Below, piece after piece: positions 19,458-43,680 of a stretch of DNA of 51,381 bases. The notes below the pieces were generated by a model. That model saw nothing but the letters and a program-made list of their open reading frames with translations. It had not been told where the DNA came from and did not search any database. Positions within the stretch are counted from its first letter, which is position 1; each line of letters begins with the position of its first letter. Made by a program: the position numbers and the translations under genes. Origin of the DNA: a virus; the IMG/VR virus record IMGVR_UViG_3300019360_000016, positions 1 to 51,381 of that record. One strand, given 5' to 3'.

Positions 19458-19898
19458 TCACTCCGCCTCGAACGCCCTTAACCCATAGATGGCCGCAACC
19501 GCTCTCGACAAATGACGAACATAGGCCCGGTATGTCTCCGGCTCCGCCCCCAAATCCTCCACCATGTCATGTAGGCGGTTTTGGAGAAAATCCAAGAAGT
19601 ACGCATCCGTCGTGTCTTGCATCCCTAACTCTCTCCTCAACGCCGAATGTAGCATCAAGATTTCGGCGAACGGCTTGTTCTCCATATCCGGCGAGTAAAG
19701 GTCGTCGGGAATTAACTGTCCAGCCGCACACCGAGTCCCATTTGGTCCTCGATACATACATCGAATGTTGTGGTTCAAAGCCATTGTCGCTCGACACCCC
19801 TGCTGCAACAGTCCATCCCTCACAGTTTGCAACCATCCCGACCACCGCTTGGCCCGTTTTGGCGTCAACCTCACATAAAACGTATCCATCGAATCCAT
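19458..19898 (-). CDS. GQLIPD-family phage protein, copy 1
   Basis: 146 residues from ATG 19898 (TGAGGAGTGCA upstream). Shares with 20251-20700 and 22006-22458 the layout: RWxGWLQTVRDGLLQQG near the start, a CMYRGPNGTRCAAGQLIPDD core, LYSPDMEN, and FLDFLQNRLHDMVED near the C terminus. The two core cysteines could bind metal. The same core (CxYRxPxGxKCAxGxLIPD) is familiar from uncharacterised phage and bacterial proteins. Function unknown. Confidence 0.8.
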   Translation of the reverse strand: MDSMDTFYVRLTPKRAKRWSGWLQTVRDGLLQQGCRATMALNHNIRCMYRGPNGTRCAAGQLIPDDLYSPDMENKPFAEILMLHSALRRELGMQDTTDAYFLDFLQNRLHDMVEDLGAEPETYRAYVRHLSRAVAAIYGLRAFEAE

Positions 19899-19930
19899 TG
19901 TTGTGCACTCCTCAAATTGTGTCACCAACC

Positions 19931-20032
19931 TCAAAACAGCGGCAACCCGTAACTCAGTACCACCACCGCATAAAACACAATCACCATCAACCCCGCCGCC
20001 CACATCACATCATTTAACACTCTCTTAGTCAT
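19931..20032 (-). CDS. Membrane micropeptide (33 aa), KRVL type
   Basis: ATG 20032 with AAGGAG upstream, overlapping the previous stop as ATGA. Starts MTKRVLNDVMWAAGLMVIVF and continues hydrophobic: one membrane helix. Its MxKRVL start resembles the 20178-20261 peptide (MSVKRVL), suggesting duplication. Confidence 0.6.
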   Translation of the reverse strand: MTKRVLNDVMWAAGLMVIVFYAVVVLSYGLPLF

Positions 20033-20181: not shown

Positions 20182-20261
20182 ACACACCCCACAATCATCG
20201 TAACCATGAGGATCACCCCCACACCACAAATGACACCAAGCAACACTCTCTTAACCGACAT
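20178..20261 (-). CDS. Membrane micropeptide (27 aa), KRVL type
   Basis: ATG 20261 with GGAG upstream, inside the 3' end of the paralogue gene. MSVKRVLLGVICGVGVILMV and a further hydrophobic stretch: one membrane helix with a basic N terminus. Stop overlaps the next start as ATGA. Confidence 0.6.
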   Translation of the reverse strand: MSVKRVLLGVICGVGVILMVTMIVGCV

Positions 20262-20700
20262 TCGGAAAATACTCCTCTCTAGCCCCAATCTCTAAATCAT
20301 AAACCGCAGCTAACATCCGGCCAGCGGCGTATACACACTCCCGGAATACCACTCCCTCCGCTCTCGTCAATCCATCATGGAGAGGATTTTGGAGGAGGAT
20401 CAGAAACGAGAGGTCCAAATTATCCTTGGCCCCTAAATGCGTAGCCACAGCGGGCCACCTAGTGAATAGGCCACTAAAGAACTCGTTCTCCATTTCCGGA
20501 CGGTAGAGATGGTCCGGAATTAACTGCCCAATACCACACTTACGACCATCCGCAGTGCGATACCGACAACTAATCCCATCATGTGCACTCCTGCCTTGGG
20601 CAATCAATCCCCTAATGATTTGCCGAACCCATCCAGCCCACCGCTCTCGCCGTTCCAAACACAAACACACATGCAATGATTCGACTGGTTCCGTTTCCAT
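20251..20700 (-). CDS. GQLIPD-family phage protein, copy 2
   Basis: 149 residues from ATG 20700 (TGAGGAGTGCA upstream). RWAGWVRQIIRGLIAQG, CRYRTADGRKCGIGQLIPDH, LYRPEMEN and FLILLQNPLHDGL align with copies 1 and 3. An intrinsic terminator ends only a few bases before its ribosome site, so its expression may depend on readthrough. Confidence 0.8.
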   Translation of the reverse strand: METEPVESLHVCLCLERRERWAGWVRQIIRGLIAQGRSAHDGISCRYRTADGRKCGIGQLIPDHLYRPEMENEFFSGLFTRWPAVATHLGAKDNLDLSFLILLQNPLHDGLTRAEGVVFRECVYAAGRMLAAVYDLEIGAREEYFPNVG

Positions 20701-20788: not shown

Positions 20789-22006
20789 CTAGCCCAGAAT
20801 AGTTACCGGGCGTTCGTACTCATCCAACAGCACCCCCACCCGGAAAATGCGATACCTCACTTGGTACACACCCGGAGCCGCATACAAGTGCCGTTTCTCA
20901 CACCTAGTTTCCTCCGAGTACACCGAACATGACCCTGACACATTCCCGTCGCCCCACCAAATCTCGAACCGATCCGGCTCAGGACCGCCACCCGGCACTC
21001 CCGCCCACTCTGTCCAGGGCTGCAACCACACGTAGGTCCCGAGCGGAATCGGGTAAGCATCGGTGTTTACCCGCACACCGCCCCTACTCAGAATGAACCC
21101 CGCCCACGGAGCGGTGAAAACCGGAGCACCCGTATTGCACGGCGTGTACCCCCCCGACGGAGGCCCTTCATCCACAAGCAACGTTTGTGTAACCTTGGTG
21201 GAGCGGCCCAAATCATCACTCACAGTGATGTGTCGCAGAAACGTCTTCCGGTTTCGCAGCCCTCCCGTATCCGCCGTCATGCGGGGCTGGTACAACCACC
21301 GCTGCCCGAACTCCGCCCCGGACGTAAGGCCATTAAACACCCGAATCGGTGATTCCCCATCACACGGCTTGAATCCGATGTTAACCACCGCCCTCATCAA
21401 CTTATCTTCGGGGTCGAAGGGCGTGAATCGAAAATCGCTACCTTGACTCAGACCCCACCATCCCACCGCCACATCCCAATCGAGTGCTTCAGTCCCAGTA
21501 GGGAGTAATGGGCCGTAACTCGTCGCCACCACACTCGGAGACTCATTCCACAACTCCGAAGGGTTGGGGTTCGGGGCCACCGTCACCCGGAACAACAAAT
21601 GCTCCGATCGTCTCCCCCACCCATCTTGGCAACATGTGGCGGTGTATGTTCCCGGTTGGTGGTAGTTGTAGGTGAAAACCGGGTTAGCATTGGGCGTCTG
21701 GTTCCCCACCGAAGCGGCATTGGTCATGGGATCCGTGTCCCCCGAACTCATCGTCCACCGATCGGGTTGACTCGTAATGATCGTCCGACAGGAATCCGCA
21801 AAGTCGAACGTAAACGGCATACCCTGCACTGCACTCAACCGCAGAATCGGCAACGGTCGTGCCGTTTGAGCCGGGTAATCCACGCCCCACACACAGGAAA
21901 ACGGATCATTCGTGATCTGTAACTGCTGCGGCGGCACTCCCTGCGGTAGCGGCGGTCCCGCTTGTGCCATCACCCCCATAAGTACTCCCACAATTCTTGT
22001 ATTCAT
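20789..22006 (-). CDS. Secreted PKD-fold protein encoded in the early block
   Basis: 405 residues from ATG 22006 (GGAG upstream; overlaps the previous stop as TGATG). Residues 1-16 form a signal peptide with a signal peptidase I site after AQA. The mature protein is beta-rich with at least two PKD/Ig-like modules: PVFTYNYHQPGTYTATC (near 110-130) and a C-terminal WWGDGNVSG followed by HLYAAPGVYQVRYRIF. Several Cys suggest disulphides. PKD domains bind proteins or sugars at cell surfaces. An exported early protein could block superinfection or alter the envelope; a virion role is also possible. Confidence 0.8.
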   Translation of the reverse strand: MNTRIVGVLMGVMAQAGPPLPQGVPPQQLQITNDPFSCVWGVDYPAQTARPLPILRLSAVQGMPFTFDFADSCRTIITSQPDRWTMSSGDTDPMTNAASVGNQTPNANPVFTYNYHQPGTYTATCCQDGWGRRSEHLLFRVTVAPNPNPSELWNESPSVVATSYGPLLPTGTEALDWDVAVGWWGLSQGSDFRFTPFDPEDKLMRAVVNIGFKPCDGESPIRVFNGLTSGAEFGQRWLYQPRMTADTGGLRNRKTFLRHITVSDDLGRSTKVTQTLLVDEGPPSGGYTPCNTGAPVFTAPWAGFILSRGGVRVNTDAYPIPLGTYVWLQPWTEWAGVPGGGPEPDRFEIWWGDGNVSGSCSVYSEETRCEKRHLYAAPGVYQVRYRIFRVGVLLDEYERPVTILG

Positions 22007-22458
22007 CACTGGTACTCCTGTAAACTGACAAACTTCACTGGTAGCCCATACACCTGAGCTACCGCAACACCCACATCGTACACCGTTTGCCGAAACTCTT
22101 TAGACCCGCAAACCGATATGGTGTCATGCAATCTCGACTGCATCATGTCCAGAAACGTCGTGTCCTGTTCGGTTTTACACCCCAACGCCGTTTTCACTTC
22201 GGGCCAAAGACACAAGACGTTAGCTATTGATTGGCCTTCCATTTGCCCACTATACAGGTGGTCTGGAATGAGTTGTCCGGCGGCACATTTATTGTTGCCT
22301 GCCCGGTAATAACATCGTCGAACCCCGAAATCATCCTCGCCCAACGCTGGTCGTCTTTGGTGGAGCAACCCATTCACCATATTCGTCAACCATCCACCCC
22401 ACCGAACCTTCGTCTCTGCATCCGGAATCAATCCGGCCAATCCCGCCGTGTGATCCAT
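22006..22458 (-). CDS. GQLIPD-family phage protein, copy 3
   Basis: 150 residues from ATG 22458 with AAGGA upstream. RWGGWLTNMVNGLLHQ, CYYRAGNNKCAAGQLIPDH, LYSGQMEGQ and FLDMMQSRLHDTI match copies 1 and 2. It is the first of the three to be transcribed, just after the 269-residue gene. Confidence 0.8.
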   Translation of the reverse strand: MDHTAGLAGLIPDAETKVRWGGWLTNMVNGLLHQRRPALGEDDFGVRRCYYRAGNNKCAAGQLIPDHLYSGQMEGQSIANVLCLWPEVKTALGCKTEQDTTFLDMMQSRLHDTISVCGSKEFRQTVYDVGVAVAQVYGLPVKFVSLQEYQ

Positions 22459-22511
22459 GACACTATCCTTCTGTTGAAGCCGGGTACAACTCTCCCGGTC
22501 CGAACCACCAC

Positions 22512-23321
22512 TTAACCACCTGTACCATAACAACTACCCACCACACCAAGCAGAGCGGCATGAGCGTCTGCGACTATCGGCACTAGCGGGTAAGGCTCAA
22601 TCAATCCCTTGGCCCGCAATGAATCGACATACAGGTATTGCACAGAATACAACGCGGAGGCAGAGTATATGAGTTTGGCCTCAGCTAAAGCCGTATCACT
22701 TTCCACAATGAACTGTAGCCAGTCACGAGGTGTTAGTTTTTCCCCGGTCCGAACACGGATATAAGCCGTACACAATTGATACACCAAGCTGCTCAACAAG
22801 GACTGGTCGTGGTGTCGGTGCCACGTTTCCCAGTCGAAGTTTATCGTGATCTTCTGCCACATATCCACCGTGGCCGATTCGTGGATTGCTTCGGGATGCT
22901 TTCGTGTCTTGAGCATTTTCTCAAAGTCTTGAACGTGAATCCAAGCCATTGTTCTCCAGTAGTACAGAGGGGAGGAAACATCCCAGCCCCGACCCAAGCC
23001 GAGTTTCTGTCGAGCCGGCGTGGGCATGATGTATCGGTATGGGATTCGCACCGACCCCTGGTCTTGTGGGGAATCCTGAACCATCGAGTTGTAAACGGCG
23101 GGACTGTGATCCGGATTGTATCCCTGTTTCCCCGTCTCCCTCTGGAACATCTCCCACAACATCGTCGGCCAATACTCCTCACATAGCTTCCAAGAGGAGG
23201 TGATGTTCCGTGCCGCCAACCATTCCCGCCACCCCGACACAAGTAGGCCCCGCTTCGTCCCATCCGAATGGGCTTGGTCCAATCGTCGGATGTGGAACAA
23301 GTAGATAATATCACTGGTCAT
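22512..23321 (-). CDS. Hypothetical protein downstream of the conjugation cassette
   Basis: 269 residues from ATG 23321, with GGAG upstream and an ATGA overlap with the previous gene. Trp/Tyr/His-rich and mainly helical (SGWREWLAARNITSSWKLCE; WETWHRHHDQSLLSSLVYQL). No motif recognised. It continues the overlapping chain that begins with the ubiquitin-like gene, so it may be a target, adaptor or unrelated passenger. Confidence 0.72.
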   Translation of the reverse strand: MTSDIIYLFHIRRLDQAHSDGTKRGLLVSGWREWLAARNITSSWKLCEEYWPTMLWEMFQRETGKQGYNPDHSPAVYNSMVQDSPQDQGSVRIPYRYIMPTPARQKLGLGRGWDVSSPLYYWRTMAWIHVQDFEKMLKTRKHPEAIHESATVDMWQKITINFDWETWHRHHDQSLLSSLVYQLCTAYIRVRTGEKLTPRDWLQFIVESDTALAEAKLIYSASALYSVQYLYVDSLRAKGLIEPYPLVPIVADAHAALLGVVGSCYGTGG

Positions 23322-23508: not shown

Positions 23509-23736
23509 CTACATGATGTGGTGAGCCGACCCCTTTACCACAATATCCTCGGTCGGTTGACCGGTAATCCATTCTACATACAACGCCAACGATTTTCCAG
23601 CGGCCCCCTTCGGCCAGTGGAGGTGATGTTCCAGCCGCCCCATAAACCGACCGAACTCCTTGGAGGTCATCACTCCCGTCACCGCCTTCAGGGCATCGTA
23701 CACCGCATTCCCGTCCCGCACTGAGGGTTGATACAT
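23509..23736 (-). CDS. Small protein following the E1-like gene (75 aa)
   Basis: ATG 23736 overlaps the E1-like stop as TAATG. Starts MYQPSVRDGNAVYDALKAVT and contains KSLALYVEWITGQPTED. The short phrase EWITGQ also occurs in the 28666-28878 product (QEWITGQTCP), so the two may be distant relatives. Tight coupling to the E1-like gene makes it a possible accessory of the cassette. Confidence 0.7.
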   Translation of the reverse strand: MYQPSVRDGNAVYDALKAVTGVMTSKEFGRFMGRLEHHLHWPKGAAGKSLALYVEWITGQPTEDIVVKGSAHHIM

Positions 23737-24440
23737 TATCGGTCTCCGTGCAGGGAGAACTGACACTCGGCCTCCAACATCCCATCGTGGACCTTCACCG
23801 GTAGGGCGGACCCCCTCAACCAGTGAGCGTAACACTCCACCGCCCGACTTCCCGCTTTGGCGGCGGTGTAATACGTTGCCTGAGCCGTACACGGAGCGGC
23901 GTAAGCTTTGTGTTGTGGGAACCACTCCGACAAGTAGTGGTCGTAACGTTCCTGATCGGTGATCGGAATAGTGACTCCCGTTTCCAGGCCCATCCGAGTA
24001 TCCACCAAGAATTGCGGTTTCCGTTTTCGGGCCCACAACGAGGTAACAATCAACCTCCGTGCTTCCATGTTGTCAACACACAGGAACACAGCGGCAGTGG
24101 CGGGTATCAACTTCAACCGATCCGCCGTCATCATCTCCGGCAGACACACCACCTTCACCTCCGGATTCCGGTTTCGCAGATCGTGACTCAGGGCTTGCAC
24201 CTTGGGTTGTCCCAAATCCCCATGAAACCAACCCTGGGTTCCCAAGTTCTCTAACGCCACCGTGTCTCCGTCCACCAATGTAATGCGGTTCACGCCCATT
24301 GACACAAGAAGTCGGGCGATCATGGCTCCGATTGCCCCCGTTCCAATCACCGCCACCGGGTGACTGTTCAACAGATCGGGTGGCAGCACTCCGGAAAACC
24401 GGGCCGCTCTCGCCTCAGCCAATAAGGAGGGGGCTTTCAT
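23736..24440 (-). CDS. E1-like (ThiF/UBA) activating enzyme
   Basis: 234 residues. Adenylation (Rossmann) domain: VIGTGAIGAM (nucleotide loop, G33/G35/G38), LVDGDTVALENLG (D57, D59), LGQPK (K80) and FLCVDNMEARR (D123). A candidate catalytic cysteine is C184 in APCTAQATYYTAAKAGS, the position used by small ThiF-type E1 proteins. The usual NLxRQ is NLGTQ. It would adenylate the C terminus of a ubiquitin-like protein, encoded three genes upstream. The start overlaps the JAMM gene by 26 bases, with GGAG upstream. Confidence 0.9.
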   Translation of the reverse strand: MKAPSLLAEARAARFSGVLPPDLLNSHPVAVIGTGAIGAMIARLLVSMGVNRITLVDGDTVALENLGTQGWFHGDLGQPKVQALSHDLRNRNPEVKVVCLPEMMTADRLKLIPATAAVFLCVDNMEARRLIVTSLWARKRKPQFLVDTRMGLETGVTIPITDQERYDHYLSEWFPQHKAYAAPCTAQATYYTAAKAGSRAVECYAHWLRGSALPVKVHDGMLEAECQFSLHGDR

Positions 24441-25281
24441 CTATCTTCTCCAGACAAAGAGGTGTATCCTTGACCAAACCGGACAGTTCTCCGGTTGCCG
24501 CAAACTTCACCAACTCACCACCACTTAACCACCGCCCACCACCCTTGGTGCTGGGCAACTCCACAAACAGGAGTTTCTTCCAGTGCTTCACATCACGAGC
24601 CCTGCCGAGCGGAGCATATTTATCCCGCCGCCCGTCGTAAATACACAGCACTCCGTTTTGATTGATGAACGGCAAATGCATAGCCACCCTGTGTCCGATC
24701 AACGATTCCGACCACGACTTCGCGGTTTCCGTTTTCGGCCACACCTTGGGGCGAACATTAGCCGAATACAATCTCTCCAACTGTTGATCCAAGTCGGCGG
24801 GCACACCGTAGGGGGGAGCCATGTCGAACAAAAACGGAATGGTCTGCTCCAACCGCAGGCCCCGAATTGTGGATTGCACCTTGGCGTAAGTATCTCCGCC
24901 CCGTGCTGCAATCGCCATCACCGCCCAATCAAACAATCCGAACGTTTCCCGAAACACCGCCTCATCTTGGCCGGACGGATGAGCGCTGGTGCCGGGGTGA
25001 CTATGTATCCACACCCTCATGAATTGGCGTGCCTCCCACCCCGCCCCTTCCCACACCTCCAAAATATCCTGAAGGCTGGACGGGCAAAACTCTGTCCATG
25101 CCGGCTCATCGAATTGTACCGGCACAATCAGATCAGTGACCACCAAGCTCTCCGGGTCCGGCGTTACCCCCAACACCGATACCTCAGTCGGCCCTCTCCT
25201 CATCAACCACTGTAACTTCAACCACGCCAGGGGTTTCAGCACCACCTGTGTTGGCGGTTTCTGGGGTCTTGTCTCCGTCAT
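24415..25281 (-). CDS. JAMM/MPN+ metallopeptidase (ubiquitin-like deconjugase)
   Basis: 288 residues. All JAMM residues are present: E33 in PTEVSVLG, H93 and H95 in WIHSHPG, S103 and D106 in HPSGQD (HxH then ten residues then D). Residues 1-160 are the JAB domain; the rest is a second domain (GHRVAMHLPFINQNGVLCIY; KKLLFVELPSTKGGG), as in PRTRC protein A-like proteins. It should cleave isopeptide bonds or trim the ubiquitin-like C terminus, in the cytoplasm. Start has AAAAGGAG upstream and lies 98 bases inside the previous gene. Confidence 0.92.
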   Translation of the reverse strand: MTETRPQKPPTQVVLKPLAWLKLQWLMRRGPTEVSVLGVTPDPESLVVTDLIVPVQFDEPAWTEFCPSSLQDILEVWEGAGWEARQFMRVWIHSHPGTSAHPSGQDEAVFRETFGLFDWAVMAIAARGGDTYAKVQSTIRGLRLEQTIPFLFDMAPPYGVPADLDQQLERLYSANVRPKVWPKTETAKSWSESLIGHRVAMHLPFINQNGVLCIYDGRRDKYAPLGRARDVKHWKKLLFVELPSTKGGGRWLSGGELVKFAATGELSGLVKDTPLCLEKIDESPLLIG

Positions 25282-26380
25282 GTTTTCTCCTTTTCGTTTT
25301 CGGATTACACTTCACACAGCAACCCTCACTACCCATGTGGGTTGGACAAAAGGACAGGCGGCATTTCTTACATACCCCGCCCAAATTGTGCTTAGGACAC
25401 ACCGTTTTCCCGCAATATCGGCCAGTGGGGGTTCCCACGGCGCAACTAGCTTTATGATAGGTGCTGATAGTTCGTGCCACACACACCCGACAGAACCCCG
25501 CCTCCGGACCCCTCGCCTCCACCACACAAACCGGACAGACATACGGATTCGCTGAAACCGGGCTCAACGGAACTGCGGCCCGACAATGAAGACAATCCGA
25601 CCGGCAACCCGCACACTTAGGCGTATTCATATCCCGGTGGTAGGGCTTGAAGCAGACGTTGCACACTTCCCCCTTCTCATCCCAAAACGCCATGCTTTTG
25701 ATGTGCCGCCCAGTCATATCATGCTGATGTAGGTAGTCCCACAACACACTGAACGCTTCCGGAACATCTTGGTGGCGAAGGGCTCTTTCATACGGCATTT
25801 CCGCTCCACCCAAACACGGCTTGAACCATCCCTCCATTATTGTCCACTGTTCCTGCCACTGAGGGGCTGCCTCGTGAGGATGCAAAATGTGGGGCGAAAT
25901 CTGCTGCTGCAAATCCGCATACCGATGCGGCGACCTATCTCCGAACACCCTAAACAACGGCTGGGCATTCTGATTCAACCGCCACAACCAAAACGGAATC
26001 ATCACTCGAAACTGCCCCAACCTCACCGGATCATCTCCCACATAGCCCGGTACTGGTGGGTCCACCGGCAGGGATACCATCGGGGTGTCAATCCATACCC
26101 GCTGAATGCCCCCCCTTGAATCTGCTCCCCACTCTCCACCCGGAATACACGTCGCCAAGGCCAATATCAATGCGTCGGGATTCTCATACAGCTTGTAGGG
26201 CACACGCCGCGATGCCCCTGTCATGCCGAACTCCGAGTTGGCGATGTGCTCTGCGGCTACTGTATCCGCCAACTCAGCCCACTCCAAAAACATTTCCTTC
26301 GTCAGTCGTCGTTGCTCCTCCTCTGTCGGCGTGCGGCACATGTACATCCACAACTTGGTGACAACTTCCTCTCTCGTCAT
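25184..26380 (-). CDS. Possible E2-like domain fused to cysteine-rich (RING/ribbon-like) zinc domain
   Basis: 398 residues from ATG 26380 (GAGGAG upstream). Residues 1-235: helical start, then beta strands (FRVMIPFWLW), SPHILHPHE (162-170) and a solitary Cys in FKPCLGG (C189), the order expected of divergent bacterial E2 (UBC) folds: His-Pro-His, then a catalytic Cys followed by helices. Residues 240-358 hold 19 Cys, mostly in CxxC pairs (CNVC, CAGC, CLHC, CPVC, CRVC, CKKC, CVKC) plus CPKH and CPTH, which suggests several treble-clef or ribbon zinc sites. A charged tail follows. Zinc binding is clear; E2 and E3-like roles are inference from pattern and operon. Confidence 0.75.
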   Translation of the reverse strand: MTREEVVTKLWMYMCRTPTEEEQRRLTKEMFLEWAELADTVAAEHIANSEFGMTGASRRVPYKLYENPDALILALATCIPGGEWGADSRGGIQRVWIDTPMVSLPVDPPVPGYVGDDPVRLGQFRVMIPFWLWRLNQNAQPLFRVFGDRSPHRYADLQQQISPHILHPHEAAPQWQEQWTIMEGWFKPCLGGAEMPYERALRHQDVPEAFSVLWDYLHQHDMTGRHIKSMAFWDEKGEVCNVCFKPYHRDMNTPKCAGCRSDCLHCRAAVPLSPVSANPYVCPVCVVEARGPEAGFCRVCVARTISTYHKASCAVGTPTGRYCGKTVCPKHNLGGVCKKCRLSFCPTHMGSEGCCVKCNPKTKRRKHDGDKTPETANTGGAETPGVVEVTVVDEERAD

Positions 26381-26475
26381 GTCTGTCTCCTCAAAACTAA
26401 GCGGCATAGAGCTATCACCGCACTTGTATCCCGCAGACACTCACAAGCTCCTTAAACGGTGCTCGCGGCATTCTC

Positions 26476-26721
26476 TCAGGCCCCCGCCACGTTCGCCGGA
26501 GCCACCCCGATCCGGCTACCGTCCTGCACCGTCGTCCGGGCGGCTTCCTCAGCATCAACCGTTCGGCGACTCCCATCCGGGGCCGTCAACCGAATCGTAA
26601 CCTTGGTGGAGGGATTGCTGCCGATCTGCCGCTCCACAATCTCCTTCACCGTGGTCCCTTCCGGGACCTCCAACTCCACAACCTGCCCCTCTCCAAACGG
26701 GGAACTAAACTTGATCTGCAT
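26476..26721 (-). CDS. Ubiquitin-like (beta-grasp) modifier
   Basis: 81 residues from ATG 26721 (GGAG seven bases upstream; another ATG at 26733). Secondary structure pattern fits a beta-grasp: MQIKFSSP, a second strand VVELEVP, helix TVKEIVERQI, strand KVTIRLTAPDG, and a final VQDGSRIGVAP strand. It ends ANVAGA; removal of the last Ala would leave a C-terminal Gly. First gene of the cassette, upstream of the E2/zinc, JAMM and E1-like genes, as expected for the modifier. Confidence 0.8.
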   Translation of the reverse strand: MQIKFSSPFGEGQVVELEVPEGTTVKEIVERQIGSNPSTKVTIRLTAPDGSRRTVDAEEAARTTVQDGSRIGVAPANVAGA

Positions 26722-26853
26722 AGCTTTCTCCATGAAGAAAAATACCCTTGTTCCCGAAACCGGCCACAGATTGAGGAGTGTTTCCTCGTTCTGGTGGGGG
26801 ACATTTTCCCTTTGGCGGCATCGGTCACGTTCCTGGGACCTACACCGGCCCCA

Positions 26854-36197: not shown

Positions 36198-38879
36198 TTA
36201 CGCCCTGGTGGTGAGGATTTTCACCTCAGCATCCAGGGGGCATGTTCTCCCGTAATGTTGTTCAAGTTGGTGCCAGAAGGGTACATCTCTCAGGTGCCGG
36301 AGACAGACCTCTTCCACCACCGGGTACTCCGCCTTCGGGCATTCCACTAGCATTGAGTCGTAAATCTTCAGGTTGGACATAGCCGCCATGTCTCGTGCCC
36401 TAAACTCCTCCTCCACCCACCATGAGGCGTCAATCAGCGTGTCGGCGGCGAGGGTCTGAATGGGGAAGTTGGATATTTCGTTGATCTTGTTCTGGGTTCC
36501 CCTCACTCCGCCCACAAAGAGTCGTGACTGTCCGAGCACCGGTAGGGCGGCGTACCTAGTCGCCACGGTGGACTTGATCCACTGCTCCTGCCACCGCCCA
36601 AACTCCTTGTGATCGGAGTAGTAGGCGGATATAAGTTTCTGCCAGAATCGCACCGGAAGCAGCAACTTATTGTCCCTCGCGGCTGTCTCCATGAGTTTGC
36701 GGGCTCCGGCTTTGAATAGCACTGCGAAGTTCACCGTTTTCCCCAACTGCCTCCAAGTTTTCACCCCCGGCGTGTCTTTGGTGGCGGTAGGGCCTGAGAA
36801 CAGTTGCTCCAACCAGTCCCGTTCTACTCCGGCGAATTGGTTGAGGTTCCCCGTTTTCATGTAGTCACGCATTTCGCGGAGAATCATCAACCCTGTGGTG
36901 AGGTGTATGTCACGGTCGAGGCGGTAGTCCTCCAGCATCAAGGGGTCCCCTGACACCAAGGCGGCGGTCCTGAGTTCAATCTGGCTCTCATCCCCTTCAC
37001 ACAGGACGCCCGGTGAAAACCGGGTCCACAGGGTGCGTTTCAGCGGCTTCGACAAATTGAGCAGGCCCGGATTGCGGCAGGTAATTCGTCCCTGCTTGGT
37101 GCCCCCCGACGACGTATCCTCAAACTGGCTGGGGATAACGTACCAAGTCGGGTAGGCGGTGTCAGTTAGTAGGCAGGACGCCTTGGAGAGTTCCGTTTGC
37201 CCCTTAACTTTTCTGCCCACCAGAAGCGGACGGGTGTATCGGGAAACGGTGTCTCTGAGAGTTTTGAACCTCTGTATGCACCGAACCTTCCGAGCGGACT
37301 CACAGTAAGGATCAAGATTACCAAGTAGCAGATTGAAGTTCTCATCACCGGCGGATATCTCCTTGGTTTTGGGGGTCCGTTTCACTCGCCGATCATTGTG
37401 GAGATTGGCTAAAATCAATGCCTCCTCCATGACCGCCGAGTACCACCCCTTCACTCCCTTACCGTCCAATTTCCCCTGCCACCTAGTTTGTGCATATCGT
37501 CGTAGTCGGTCTGCACGAACGTTGCTAGTGCCCTGAATCTCGGCAACAACACGGCTGTCGATAGTGACTCCTCGCTCTGAGGCGTACATCGCCCACCACA
37601 ACAATCTATTGTAGTGGTCGTAGCAGGCCGGGGAGAGTTTGTCCGTTTCCGGGTAGTCGCGGCGGATGCTTTCCACCAACGATTCATAGTTGACAAGAGT
37701 GGCCACCGTATCTTTGGCGTTGTAGTCATAAAGTCGAGAGTCCTCCACAGACGGGTAACGATGGGTTTTGAGATTCAGTTCCTCATCGTAGTCAGCCACC
37801 ATGAGGAGTTTGGAGAGGTTCTTGAGGCTGCGTTCTGGCCGAACCTCACTGAACAGGTAGTTAATGACGCCCAATTCAATCAGTTTCCACCGGGTGTGGT
37901 TGAAGGTACGGCCCCACGGATACGCAGCCCGCAGGAACATCACATCAAACGGGATGTTCATACCCAAGAGTGTACGGCAGCCCCGTTTCCAGGAGTAATC
38001 CAGCAGGGCCCTAAACGATTTCCGCCCCTCCCGTGTCTGCATGTTGTATACCGCCGTCCGTAACCCGTCCGGGGTCCTCCATGAAACCGCAGCAGTTTGA
38101 ATGAGTTGATTCCGGCGGCACTGATCTGTCACCAAGGAGCGTGTCGGCTGGAACACGGTCTGCTTGGGGAGGCCCTCTATGCAGCCATAGGTCTCAAAAT
38201 CCAACGATAGGAGGTCGGGCACAAACTCCCCGACGGAGACTGCATTCCACTCCAATGTGGGCACTTCCGCTCTGGTGGGGATGTTTCCCGTTTCCAGGTA
38301 GGTCACAAGGAGATTGAGGTGATCAGCTACGTTGGCGGCTTCCTCTGGGGCCCGGTCCTTCATGAGTGCGGCCGGGTTCGAGGTCCAGAACACCGGCACC
38401 GAAACCGCCCCCACCGACACCGAACGGCCCTGCTGATAGAGGGCCTTCTCCAACGGTTGACTAATTAGGCTGCGGGAGGCTCCGGCACCAGCACCTAGAA
38501 TTACCACCCTCCTGTACTGGGCGGCTAGGGTTGCCACATCTTCCACGAGATGGGCATGGCACTGTTTGTACTGTCCCTGTGTCGGCTTCACATCCTTCGG
38601 GGGGCAACACCTCACCGCATTGGTGACGTAGATATCGGCGAAACGGCTAAGCCCCGCCGATCTCAGGTACACCGACTCAAGTAGTCGTCCGGACGGTCCG
38701 GTGAAGTGGGCGTTGAGGGTGTCCTCCACCACTCCGGGACAATCACCGACAATCAGTAGGGCAGTATCTCCGTTTTCGGGGCCTGACTGTATAAGCCTTG
38801 TACCAATCCCGATGTTGGTACACGTCTCCCAAAGATCACAATTCCGACATTCCGGGTGGGGATTAAGCACTGGCAACAT
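36198..38879 (-). CDS. Family-4 uracil-DNA glycosylase fused to family A DNA polymerase
   Basis: 893 residues from ATG 38879, six bases after the previous stop. UDG4 domain (1-200): C11 and C14, GDCPGVVEDTLNAHFTGPSG, YVTNAVRCCPPKDVKPT and a fourth Cys near 108, the Fe-S set of family 4. The catalytic HPS/A motif reads SNPAAL, Asn for His. Proofreading domain: LLSLDFETYG (DxE), NIPFDVMFL, YNAKD. Polymerase: RITCRNPGLLNLS, DESQIELR (motif A, canonical DYSQIELR), KTVNFAVLF (motif B), KIYDSMLVE (motif C, YDS for HDE). It copies the genome and may excise or sense uracil. Confidence 0.92.
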   Translation of the reverse strand: MLPVLNPHPECRNCDLWETCTNIGIGTRLIQSGPENGDTALLIVGDCPGVVEDTLNAHFTGPSGRLLESVYLRSAGLSRFADIYVTNAVRCCPPKDVKPTQGQYKQCHAHLVEDVATLAAQYRRVVILGAGAGASRSLISQPLEKALYQQGRSVSVGAVSVPVFWTSNPAALMKDRAPEEAANVADHLNLLVTYLETGNIPTRAEVPTLEWNAVSVGEFVPDLLSLDFETYGCIEGLPKQTVFQPTRSLVTDQCRRNQLIQTAAVSWRTPDGLRTAVYNMQTREGRKSFRALLDYSWKRGCRTLLGMNIPFDVMFLRAAYPWGRTFNHTRWKLIELGVINYLFSEVRPERSLKNLSKLLMVADYDEELNLKTHRYPSVEDSRLYDYNAKDTVATLVNYESLVESIRRDYPETDKLSPACYDHYNRLLWWAMYASERGVTIDSRVVAEIQGTSNVRADRLRRYAQTRWQGKLDGKGVKGWYSAVMEEALILANLHNDRRVKRTPKTKEISAGDENFNLLLGNLDPYCESARKVRCIQRFKTLRDTVSRYTRPLLVGRKVKGQTELSKASCLLTDTAYPTWYVIPSQFEDTSSGGTKQGRITCRNPGLLNLSKPLKRTLWTRFSPGVLCEGDESQIELRTAALVSGDPLMLEDYRLDRDIHLTTGLMILREMRDYMKTGNLNQFAGVERDWLEQLFSGPTATKDTPGVKTWRQLGKTVNFAVLFKAGARKLMETAARDNKLLLPVRFWQKLISAYYSDHKEFGRWQEQWIKSTVATRYAALPVLGQSRLFVGGVRGTQNKINEISNFPIQTLAADTLIDASWWVEEEFRARDMAAMSNLKIYDSMLVECPKAEYPVVEEVCLRHLRDVPFWHQLEQHYGRTCPLDAEVKILTTRA

Positions 38880-38884
38880 ACAGG

Positions 38885-39706
38885 TTACACCGCCTTCTGC
38901 ATCCAACGGGGCCACTGATCCAAAGCCGGAGTTGAACCACCGTCCATTACATCCGACGCAATCCCTGCCACCGTGTTGCGGGCTTGGCTGATGGTAAACT
39001 TCGACAGGTCGCCCCGGACTTGGAAGGGTAACGAGTTTTGCGGTTTCGTCGGGAATATACAATCCGTGATGATGAGATGTCCCGGATTGAGGAAGGCACT
39101 GGGACCTTCCACTCTGGGGGCTCGTAGGTTTTGTATGTAGGCGTATCGGAAATTGCCGATACTGGGTGTCCGATATCCTGTGTTCACCTCCACGGCGGTC
39201 ATGAGGATATTCTCGCACTTGTCGGCCAAGATTCCTTTACTTGCCCATCGATCCTGGACCCACTCCTTATCCGGCTTAGCTCCTCCACAGATCACGCCAT
39301 CCAACCAGAGATTTCTAACATTCACCGCCGATAAGGCATCATCACTGGACTGCCTCATAGTGGAATGGCGTATGAGGCACATCTCAATGTCCCCCACCGA
39401 CAGACTCCGCCAGCCACCCAACGGGATTTCCGTTTTCAATTCCTCGATAGGTTTCCCATAGGCGGCGTCGAACAAACAATCGAATATCCCCAAAGCCCCA
39501 ATGTTAAGGAATCCAGTTTGGCCGCTCCGCACCGTCAGTCCTACGGCGGTAACAGAGGCAAAGTCTCGAATCTCCACCGGCTTCTTGACCAGTGTCACGC
39601 CCGGTAACAGCAGCAGGACGGCTCCCGGTTCCCCCTTGATGACGGTGGTAGGGGCATCCGGGGCCTTGTCGATGAGGTCCTGAAGCGTTGAAACTACCTG
39701 TAACAT
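38885..39706 (-). CDS. Right-handed beta-helix (pectate-lyase-like) protein
   Basis: 273 residues from ATG 39706 (GGAG upstream). Repeated short strands (LTVRSGQTGFLNIGALGIFD; SVGDIEMCLIRHSTMRQSSD; AVNVRNLWLDGVICGG; GILADKCENILMTAVEV) are those of a parallel beta-helix such as pectate lyases and tailspikes. No signal peptide. It is the first gene after the early promoter, an odd place for a tailspike. Activity on polysaccharide is possible; the exact substrate cannot be read. Confidence 0.78.
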   Translation of the reverse strand: MLQVVSTLQDLIDKAPDAPTTVIKGEPGAVLLLLPGVTLVKKPVEIRDFASVTAVGLTVRSGQTGFLNIGALGIFDCLFDAAYGKPIEELKTEIPLGGWRSLSVGDIEMCLIRHSTMRQSSDDALSAVNVRNLWLDGVICGGAKPDKEWVQDRWASKGILADKCENILMTAVEVNTGYRTPSIGNFRYAYIQNLRAPRVEGPSAFLNPGHLIITDCIFPTKPQNSLPFQVRGDLSKFTISQARNTVAGIASDVMDGGSTPALDQWPRWMQKAV

Positions 39707-43596: not shown

Positions 43597-43612
43597 AACT
43601 CTTTCACCGTAA

Positions 43613-43680
43613 GCCGTTCACAGGAATTGAACCTATTCCGTGCGGATTACAAATCCGACGGGCTCCCAGAGCAAAACGGC
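43613..43680 (-). tRNA. tRNA-Thr (UGU), shortened D-arm
   Basis: 68 bases. Acceptor GCCGTTT/GAACGGC (one G-U pair); D-arm reduced to CTC-TGG-GAG; anticodon loop TTTGTAA between CGGA and TCCG, giving anticodon TGT; variable ACGGA; T-arm ATAGG-TTCAATT-CCTGT. CCA is not encoded. The three-base D-loop is unusual. Lies between the acidic zinc-ribbon gene and the largest ejection gene. Confidence 0.8.

What the first reader, a model, noticed from the sequence alone, without database searches (positions are those of the whole stretch)
23736..26721. A phage-encoded ubiquitin-like conjugation cassette
Seen: four consecutive minus-strand genes encode a beta-grasp ubiquitin-like protein (26476-26721), a possible E2-like plus zinc-rich protein (25184-26380), a JAMM peptidase with every metal residue (24415-25281) and an E1-like ThiF enzyme with nucleotide loop and candidate Cys184 (23736-24440). 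The last three overlap. Known: bacterial Bil/Bub-type and PRTRC operons have the same parts (modifier, E2, E1, JAMM), and Bil is antiviral. Inference: here a virulent phage carries such a set, perhaps to tag host or own proteins, to counter a host ubiquitin-like defence, or to mark virions. Its location in the early block favours takeover or anti-defence. I know of no characterised complete cassette of this kind in a podovirus.
Basis: partly seen in the sequence, partly recalled or inferred. Interest (0 to 1): 0.96.

Follow-up and report, generated by a model that had tools for sequence, protein, structure and literature searches.

The report
Phage-encoded ubiquitin-like protein-tagging cassette
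This phage carries four adjacent genes that together look like a complete, self-contained ubiquitin-style system for attaching a small protein tag to other proteins and removing it, and nearly the same set turns up in about a hundred other phage genomes (including the cultured human-gut phage crAss001) and in some planctomycete bacteria, which the papers I could search do not seem to have noticed.

Summary
Confirmed and strengthened. Four minus-strand genes at 23736-26733 encode, in order, a beta-grasp ubiquitin-like protein (Ubl), an E2-like protein with a zinc-rich tail, a JAMM peptidase and a ThiF/E1-like enzyme. Profiles built only from other genomes pick exactly these four ORFs out of the 761 in the window (E = 3e-14, 1e-6, 2e-32, 2e-56). 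The set recurs in the same order in phages as divergent as crAss001, a jumbo Xanthomonas phage (without JAMM) and a distant relative of this phage, and in Planctomycetota genomes. Catalytic residues are essentially invariant: E1 Cys184 (105/106), JAMM E33/H93/H95/S103/D106 (all rows with a residue), E2 His167-Pro-His and Cys189. The E2 profile aligns with yeast E2 enzymes with HPN and Cys in register. The Ubl ends in Gly plus one residue, as if trimmed by the JAMM before activation. All genes tested are under purifying selection, and mobile introns interrupt the JAMM active-site codons in five phages. It is not Bil, PRTRC, CBASS Cap2/3 or a sulfur-carrier system by the features tested. Best reading: a working phage Ubl-conjugation pathway used in the replication phase. 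The target is unknown, and no biochemistry exists. The weakest points are the E2 fold model and the biological role.

The parts
26476..26733 (-). Ubiquitin-like modifier (81-85 aa), beta-grasp fold, C-terminus ...VAPANVAGA; Gly80 (nt 26484-26482) is followed by a single Ala
   Evidence: AF2 pLDDT 85.5; Foldseek ubiquitin/NEDD8; profile vs PDB: SAMP2 6e-5, PF1061 1e-4, MoaD 3e-3; leave-one-out E=3.4e-14
25184..26440 (-). E2-like conjugating protein (398-418 aa) with His167-Pro168-His169, Cys189 and Gly191 (numbered from ATG 26380), followed by a Cys-rich, probably zinc-binding tail
   Evidence: HPH, Cys and Gly invariant in 21/21 and 33/33 aligned relatives; hhalign to yeast E2s P=2.1e-5 with HPN and Cys in register; leave-one-out E=1.4e-6
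25247..25654 (-). Cys-rich tail of the E2-like protein (repeated CxxC pairs; RING/treble-clef-like by appearance only)
   Evidence: sequence; CxxC repeats conserved in the closest relatives; absent from the crAss-type E2s
25814..25816 (-). codon of candidate E2 catalytic Cys189
   Evidence: invariant column; aligned to the E2 catalytic Cys
24415..25281 (-). JAMM/JAB metallopeptidase (288 aa) with E33, H93-x-H95, S103, D106
   Evidence: Pfam Prok-JAB 3.4e-6 over cut-off; H93/H95/S103/D106 81/81 and E33 79/79; leave-one-out E=2.2e-32
23736..24440 (-). E1-like (ThiF-fold) activating enzyme (234 aa), single adenylation domain, GxGxxG, D59, K80, D123, Cys184
   Evidence: Pfam ThiF 5.5e-27; K80 and D123 109/109, Cys184 105/106; leave-one-out E=1.9e-56
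23889..23891 (-). codon of candidate E1 catalytic Cys184
   Evidence: 105 of 106 aligned relatives have Cys

Best explanation
The cassette is a self-contained ubiquitin-like conjugation pathway of the phage. Proposed steps: (1) the JAMM trims the terminal Ala (or the longer tails of relatives) to leave a C-terminal Gly on the Ubl; (2) the E1-like enzyme, acting as a single-domain (probably dimeric) ThiF-type enzyme, adenylates that Gly and takes the Ubl as a thioester on Cys184; (3) it is passed to Cys189 of the E2-like protein, helped by the HPH motif; (4) the E2, whose zinc-rich tail may bring in targets or act as a built-in E3, attaches the Ubl to lysines of target proteins; (5) the JAMM also removes the tag, making the modification reversible. 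It probably acts during takeover and replication on phage and/or host proteins. Shown by sequence: the parts, their order, intact catalytic residues, deep conservation and purifying selection. Inferred: every reaction step, the timing and the target.
For: Leave-one-out profiles single out the four genes. Same gene order in phages and Planctomycetota. Among 70 distinct contigs chosen by E1 alone, 67 also carry the JAMM, 54 of them within 100 nt, and 59 carry the E2 or a variant of it. Catalytic residues invariant. E2 profile aligned with yeast E2s, score 35.0 against a maximum of 17.4 in 60 column-shuffled controls. Ubl fold and Gly tail: 29 of 34 Ubls have Gly within the last six residues, 18 with exactly one residue after it. 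crAss Ubls continue past ...KKIKSGA into a further domain and another group ends TGGKK, which fits JAMM trimming. dN/dS 0.05-0.57 for all genes tested. Mobile introns in the JAMM active-site codons. The cassette is shared with a phage whose portal, terminase and polymerase are only 26-32% identical.
Against: No biochemistry. The AF2 model of the window E2 is poor (pLDDT 64) and finds no E2 in the PDB. E2 homology rests on profile alignment and motif; the hhalign probability is 77%, not near 100%. The crAss-type E2s do not align to yeast E2s directly, only through the phage HPH class. The E1 lacks the Arg of the NLxRQ motif found in ThiF/MoeB (position 68 variable). No substrate or E3 is known. 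A single Gly is less typical than GG, although cGAS conjugates through a C-terminal Gly or Ala (PMC10097602).
Confidence: 0.78

Rival explanations
1. A sulfur-carrier pathway: the Ubl is a ThiS/MoaD-like thiocarboxylate donor, the E1 a ThiF/MoeB-type activator and the JAMM its processing peptidase, used to thiolate a nucleotide, base or metabolite.
For: The Ubl family is nearest to ThiS/MoaD/SAMP2 by profile. The E1 scores best against ThiF-type families. JAMM with a ThiS-like protein and E1 occurs in sulfur-assimilation operons (PMC1779556).
Against: An E2-like protein with an invariant HPH...Cys sits in the operon. The E1 is far below the ThiF/MoeB equivalog cut-offs (74 of 159 bits, 60 of 266). 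No rhodanese or sulfurtransferase was found among the flanking genes scanned. The E1 lacks CxxC zinc motifs and the NLxRQ Arg (sequence).
Confidence: 0.1
2. Same chemistry, but the role is immunity: the cassette is a Bil-like system that tags virions or proteins of competing phages (superinfection exclusion).
For: Same part list and order as BilABCD, an antiviral bacterial operon (PMC11354881). The E2 evolves faster than the E1 (omega 0.33-0.57 against 0.10-0.21 in most pairs tested), as in arms races.
Against: Defining Bil features are not met (see membership test). The cassette lies in replication modules and is kept across very divergent phage genomes, which suggests a core rather than an accessory function.
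Confidence: 0.12
3. Counter-defence: the useful part is the JAMM (or a decoy Ubl/E2), which strips or jams host ubiquitin-like defences such as Bil or CBASS Cap2/Cap3.
For: JAMMs remove Ubls, and known host Ubl systems attack phages (PMC10097602, PMC11354881). Early position in the genome.
Against: The forward enzymes are as conserved as the JAMM, with catalytic Cys residues kept. A pure deconjugase or decoy would not need an active E1 and E2. The phages concerned appear to infect many unrelated hosts.
Confidence: 0.1

Closest known systems
BilABCD (bacterial ISG15-like antiviral operon)
   Same: Four separate genes: Ubl, E2, JAMM, E1, in that order; Ubl trimmed by the JAMM to expose Gly (as described in PMC11354881)
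   Different: Here one Ubl domain instead of two; E2 with HPH before the Cys instead of CEHH with His after it; E1 of 234 aa instead of a pseudodimer with a Cys domain; zinc-rich tail on the E2; carried by phages
Operon type 6d of Iyer et al. 2006 (PMC1779556), which I equate from memory with the PRTRC plasmid cassette
   Same: Small Ubl with C-terminal Gly, JAB, E1-like and E2-like genes together, on mobile elements
   Different: E1 scores 34.7 bits against the PRTRC_ThiF cut-off of 144.75; the type 6d E2 lacks the upstream His and has a downstream one; the extra alpha-helical protein was not seen
CBASS Cap2/Cap3
   Same: E1 and E2 activities plus a JAB peptidase; conjugation through a C-terminal Gly or Ala is established there
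   Different: Separate E1 and E2 genes, a true beta-grasp modifier, no cGAS-like gene found next to it
crAss001 (Bacteroides phage) gp76-gp79
   Same: Same cassette: Ubl with extension, E2-like, JAMM, E1
   Different: Annotated only as 'thiamine biosynthesis protein', 'metalloprotease domain' and hypotheticals; E2 has HSH and no zinc tail
Lambda tail-assembly TAPI/TAPK
   Same: A phage Ubl plus a JAB peptidase
   Different: No E1 or E2, NlpC/P60 fusion, tail-gene location

Membership tests
Ubiquitin-like conjugation system (functional kind) | Beta-grasp modifier with a C-terminal Gly at or near the end | tested here: met
Ubiquitin-like conjugation system (functional kind) | E1 with nucleotide-binding motif, Lys/Asp and a catalytic Cys | tested here: met
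Ubiquitin-like conjugation system (functional kind) | E2 (UBC) fold with HPx...Cys active site | tested here: inconclusive
   Motif and register met; fold not confirmed by the AF2 model
Ubiquitin-like conjugation system (functional kind) | JAMM with all metal and catalytic residues | tested here: met
Ubiquitin-like conjugation system (functional kind) | Covalent adducts on target proteins | not testable with these tools
   needs biochemistry
Bil (BilABCD) | BilA with two Ubl domains | tested here: not met
   single domain of 81 aa; definition from PMC11354881
Bil (BilABCD) | E2 CEHH motif (Cys, +6 Glu, +8 His, +13 His) | tested here: not met
   window C189 +6 Met, +8 Tyr, +13 Arg; HPH upstream instead
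Bil (BilABCD) | E1 pseudodimer with inactive domain and Cys domain | tested here: not met
   234 aa, one adenylation domain
Bil (BilABCD) | Antiviral activity | not testable with these tools
   needs phage challenge
PRTRC / type 6d | PRTRC_ThiF (TIGR03736) above curated cut-off | tested here: not met
   34.7 of 144.75 bits
PRTRC / type 6d | E2 lacking the upstream His, with a conserved downstream His | tested here: not met
   HPH upstream of Cys invariant (definition)
PRTRC / type 6d | Partner genes (alpha-helical protein and others) | not tested
   -
CBASS Cap2/Cap3 | Fused E2-E1 protein next to a CD-NTase | tested here: not met
   separate genes; neighbours scanned show no CD-NTase
ThiF/MoeB sulfur-carrier activators | Equivalog cut-off; NLxRQ Arg; CxxC zinc site | tested here: not met
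   below cut-off; position 68 not Arg; no CxxC in the sequence
Lambda TAPI/TAPK tail module | JAB fused to NlpC/P60, tail-gene location | tested here: not met
   replication-region neighbours

The most novel reading that the evidence does not exclude
Reversible ubiquitin-like protein modification is an old, core function of several unrelated phage lineages (crAss-like phages, jumbo phages, the lineage of this window and others). It is run by an E2 family closer in active-site layout to eukaryotic E2s than BilB is, works on phage replication or takeover proteins, and the Planctomycetota cassettes derive from, or were exchanged with, the phage ones.
Probability: 0.35. Interest if true: 0.95.

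Novelty: new variant of a known kind. Interest (0 to 1): 0.88.

Why it matters
Ubl conjugation in bacteria is so far known mainly as defence against phages. Here phages themselves hold what looks like the complete pathway, widely and with conserved catalytic sites, including in the cultured phage crAss001, where the E2 and Ubl genes are annotated as hypothetical. If it works, it is a reversible protein-tagging system of viruses that can be tested directly in a laboratory phage. It also adds an E2 family with HPx...Cys to the question of where the eukaryotic ubiquitin pathway came from.

Tried and rejected
DNA and protein searches of named phages with the window E2 and JAMM found nothing; only the E1 reached crAss-like and jumbo phages. 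A single-sequence scan with the E1 and one with the terminase found no viral relatives; the JAMM scan did and opened the family. AF2 of the window E2 was low-confidence and Foldseek found no UBC, so no fold claim is made from it. HMMER of the E2 profile against the PDB gave only chance hits and very weak UBC hits; hhalign was used instead, with shuffled controls. The first genome-contig scan with the JAMM found nothing, the second with the E2 found Planctomycetota. Rejected: Bil, PRTRC, CBASS and lambda TAPI/TAPK membership; decayed remnant (purifying selection). The E1 tree is a quick tree with many open forks, so no direction of transfer is claimed. Literature searches (papers read) found no description of a phage Ubl-E2-JAMM-E1 set; subscription papers (among them Hor 2024 and Chambers 2024) and preprints are not held, so prior description cannot be excluded.
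Full report
What is there. The window is a whole IMG/VR virus record of 51,381 bases. On its minus strand lie four consecutive ORFs: a small protein (26476-26733), a 398-418 aa protein (25184-26440), a JAMM protein (24415-25281) and a ThiF-like protein (23736-24440), the last three overlapping. Pfam recognises the ThiF domain (5.5e-27) and the JAB domain (3.4e-6, over cut-off) but neither of the other two.

The family. The JAMM led to two other viral contigs, L002 and L003, with the same four genes in the same order. The E1 led to crAss-like phages and jumbo phages, where the neighbours proved to be the same parts: crAss001 gp79 (Ubl with an extension), gp78 (E2-like), gp77 (JAMM), gp76 (E1). 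The jumbo phage PhiXhv-12 has a Ubl ending in GG, an E2-like protein with zinc tail, and an E1; no JAMM was found in the 10.4 kb examined. Profile scans of IMG/VR brought about a hundred contigs. Of 100 with the E1, 96 have the JAMM, 85 directly beside it, and 75 an E2 by profile, with about ten more carrying an HPY...CLS variant. Because L026-L105 were chosen by the E1 alone, the co-occurrence is not circular: of 70 distinct ones, 67 have the JAMM and 59 the E2.

Is the window a member? Profiles trained without the window were run against its 761 ORFs. Each picks its own gene: Ubl 3.4e-14, E2 1.4e-6, JAMM 2.2e-32, E1 1.9e-56; the next ORF never beats 0.5.

The modifier. AF2 gives a confident beta-grasp (pLDDT 85.5); Foldseek finds ubiquitin, NEDD8 and BfUbb; the profile finds SAMP2, PF1061 and MoaD; seven of 21 members match Pfam ThiS. 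The tail is the telling part: VAPANVAGA here, VTPTNIKGA in L002, ITPTKVEGAC in L013, TITPTKIEGA-type in Planctomycetota. Of 34 Ubls 29 have Gly within six residues of the end, 18 with exactly one residue after it. In crAss phages KKIKSGA runs on into another domain, and another group ends TGGKK. This is the pattern expected if the JAMM trims a precursor, as BilC does for BilA (PMC11354881).

The E2. In 21 and in 33 aligned members the only fully shared residues are His-Pro-His, Cys and Gly (with one more Gly in the first set). The stretch reads HPHINIDGSICLG or HPHVGNDGFICLG, next to HPNINANGNICLD in yeast Ubc4. hhalign of the HPH class against four yeast E2s (written from memory; Ubc4 checked against the PDB) gives P = 2.1e-5, probability 77%, with HPN and Cys in register, against at most 1.5% in 60 shuffled controls; the crAss class joins the HPH class at P = 3.8e-7. 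The fold is not confirmed: the AF2 model is weak and has no PDB match. A Cys-rich tail with repeated CxxC pairs follows in the window and its nearer kin; a built-in E3 role is only a guess.

The peptidase and the E1. JAMM residues E33, H93, H95, S103 and D106 are invariant in all rows with a residue there. E1 residues G33, G35, K80 and D123 are invariant and Cys184 is kept in 105 of 106; the Arg of NLxRQ seen in ThiF/MoeB is not kept.

Selection and context. dN/dS is 0.05-0.57 for every gene tested; the E2 changes fastest in most pairs, and the E1 (in most pairs) and the L002/L003 Ubl slowest. In five phages mobile elements interrupt the JAMM gene at its active-site codons; LAGLIDADG endonuclease ORFs are present in four and Rfam recognises a group I intron in two. 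Such elements settle in sites that must be kept. The cassette travels with replication genes: primase, DnaB-type helicase, UDG, exonuclease and Sak4-like ATPase in relatives, and primase, exonuclease, Sak4-like and UDG-PolA genes in the window. The phage of L002 shares the cassette and also portal, terminase, primase, polymerase and others at 24-32% identity, so the cassette is as old in this lineage as its core genes, unless it was exchanged between them.

Bacterial relatives. The same four genes, same order, occur in Planctomycetota genomes (L107-L120, among them Lacipirellula limnantheis) and partly in one other bacterial genome (L121). Some sit near a GHKL ATPase and DUF2958. In a quick E1 tree they fall among phage sequences, but support is too weak to give a direction.

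Comparison. Gene content and order equal BilABCD, but Bil's two-domain modifier, CEHH E2 and pseudodimeric E1 are absent. PRTRC and ThiF/MoeB cut-offs are not reached. Operon type 6d of Iyer 2006 has an E2 without the upstream His. So it works like these systems, on inference, but is not filed as a member of any. I found no paper describing such a set in phages within the open-access library; that is a limited search.

Mechanism and confidence. I hold with about 0.78 that this is a working Ubl-conjugation and deconjugation pathway. Its target and role are open: modification of phage or host proteins in the replication phase is my first choice, then exclusion of rival phages, then counter-defence.

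Noticed in passing
L073:3576-4665, L093:4654-5107, L052:1221-2182, L103:3776-4695, L105:2631-3732: Mobile elements interrupt the JAMM gene at its active-site codons (in L073 between the two His of HxH); LAGLIDADG-type ORFs in four of them, Rfam group I intron in L073 and L093. In L105 the E1 gene is also interrupted near its NLxxQ motif.
   Followed up: partly
L004 (NC_049977.1 crAss001 gp76-gp79): Annotated 'thiamine biosynthesis protein', 'metalloprotease' and two hypotheticals; these are the E1, JAMM, E2-like and Ubl genes of the cassette.
   Followed up: yes
L107-L120: The same four-gene cassette in Planctomycetota genomes, some near a GHKL ATPase and DUF2958, one (L111) near an AAA ATPase; whether these loci are mobile elements was not settled.
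   Followed up: partly
L015, L019, L011, L025: Phages with two Ubl genes; L015 and L019 also have a second E1, and L011 a second E2-like ORF: possible second cassettes.
   Followed up: no
window 36198-39218: A uracil-DNA glycosylase domain fused to a family A DNA polymerase; in L002 the two are separate neighbouring genes just downstream of the cassette.
   Followed up: partly
window 19458-20003, 20251-20700, 22006-22533: Three paralogous small genes sharing a 'C(A/G)(A/I)GQLIPDxLYxxxME' motif; one matches phrog_17693 (unknown function).
   Followed up: no
window 43612-43680 (-): Weak Rfam tRNA match (29.5 bits, cut-off 29); ARAGORN finds no tRNA.
   Followed up: no
L027-L049 group: Variant cassette with HPY...CLS in place of HPH...C-x-G and, in L047, a Ubl ending TGGKK.
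   Followed up: partly
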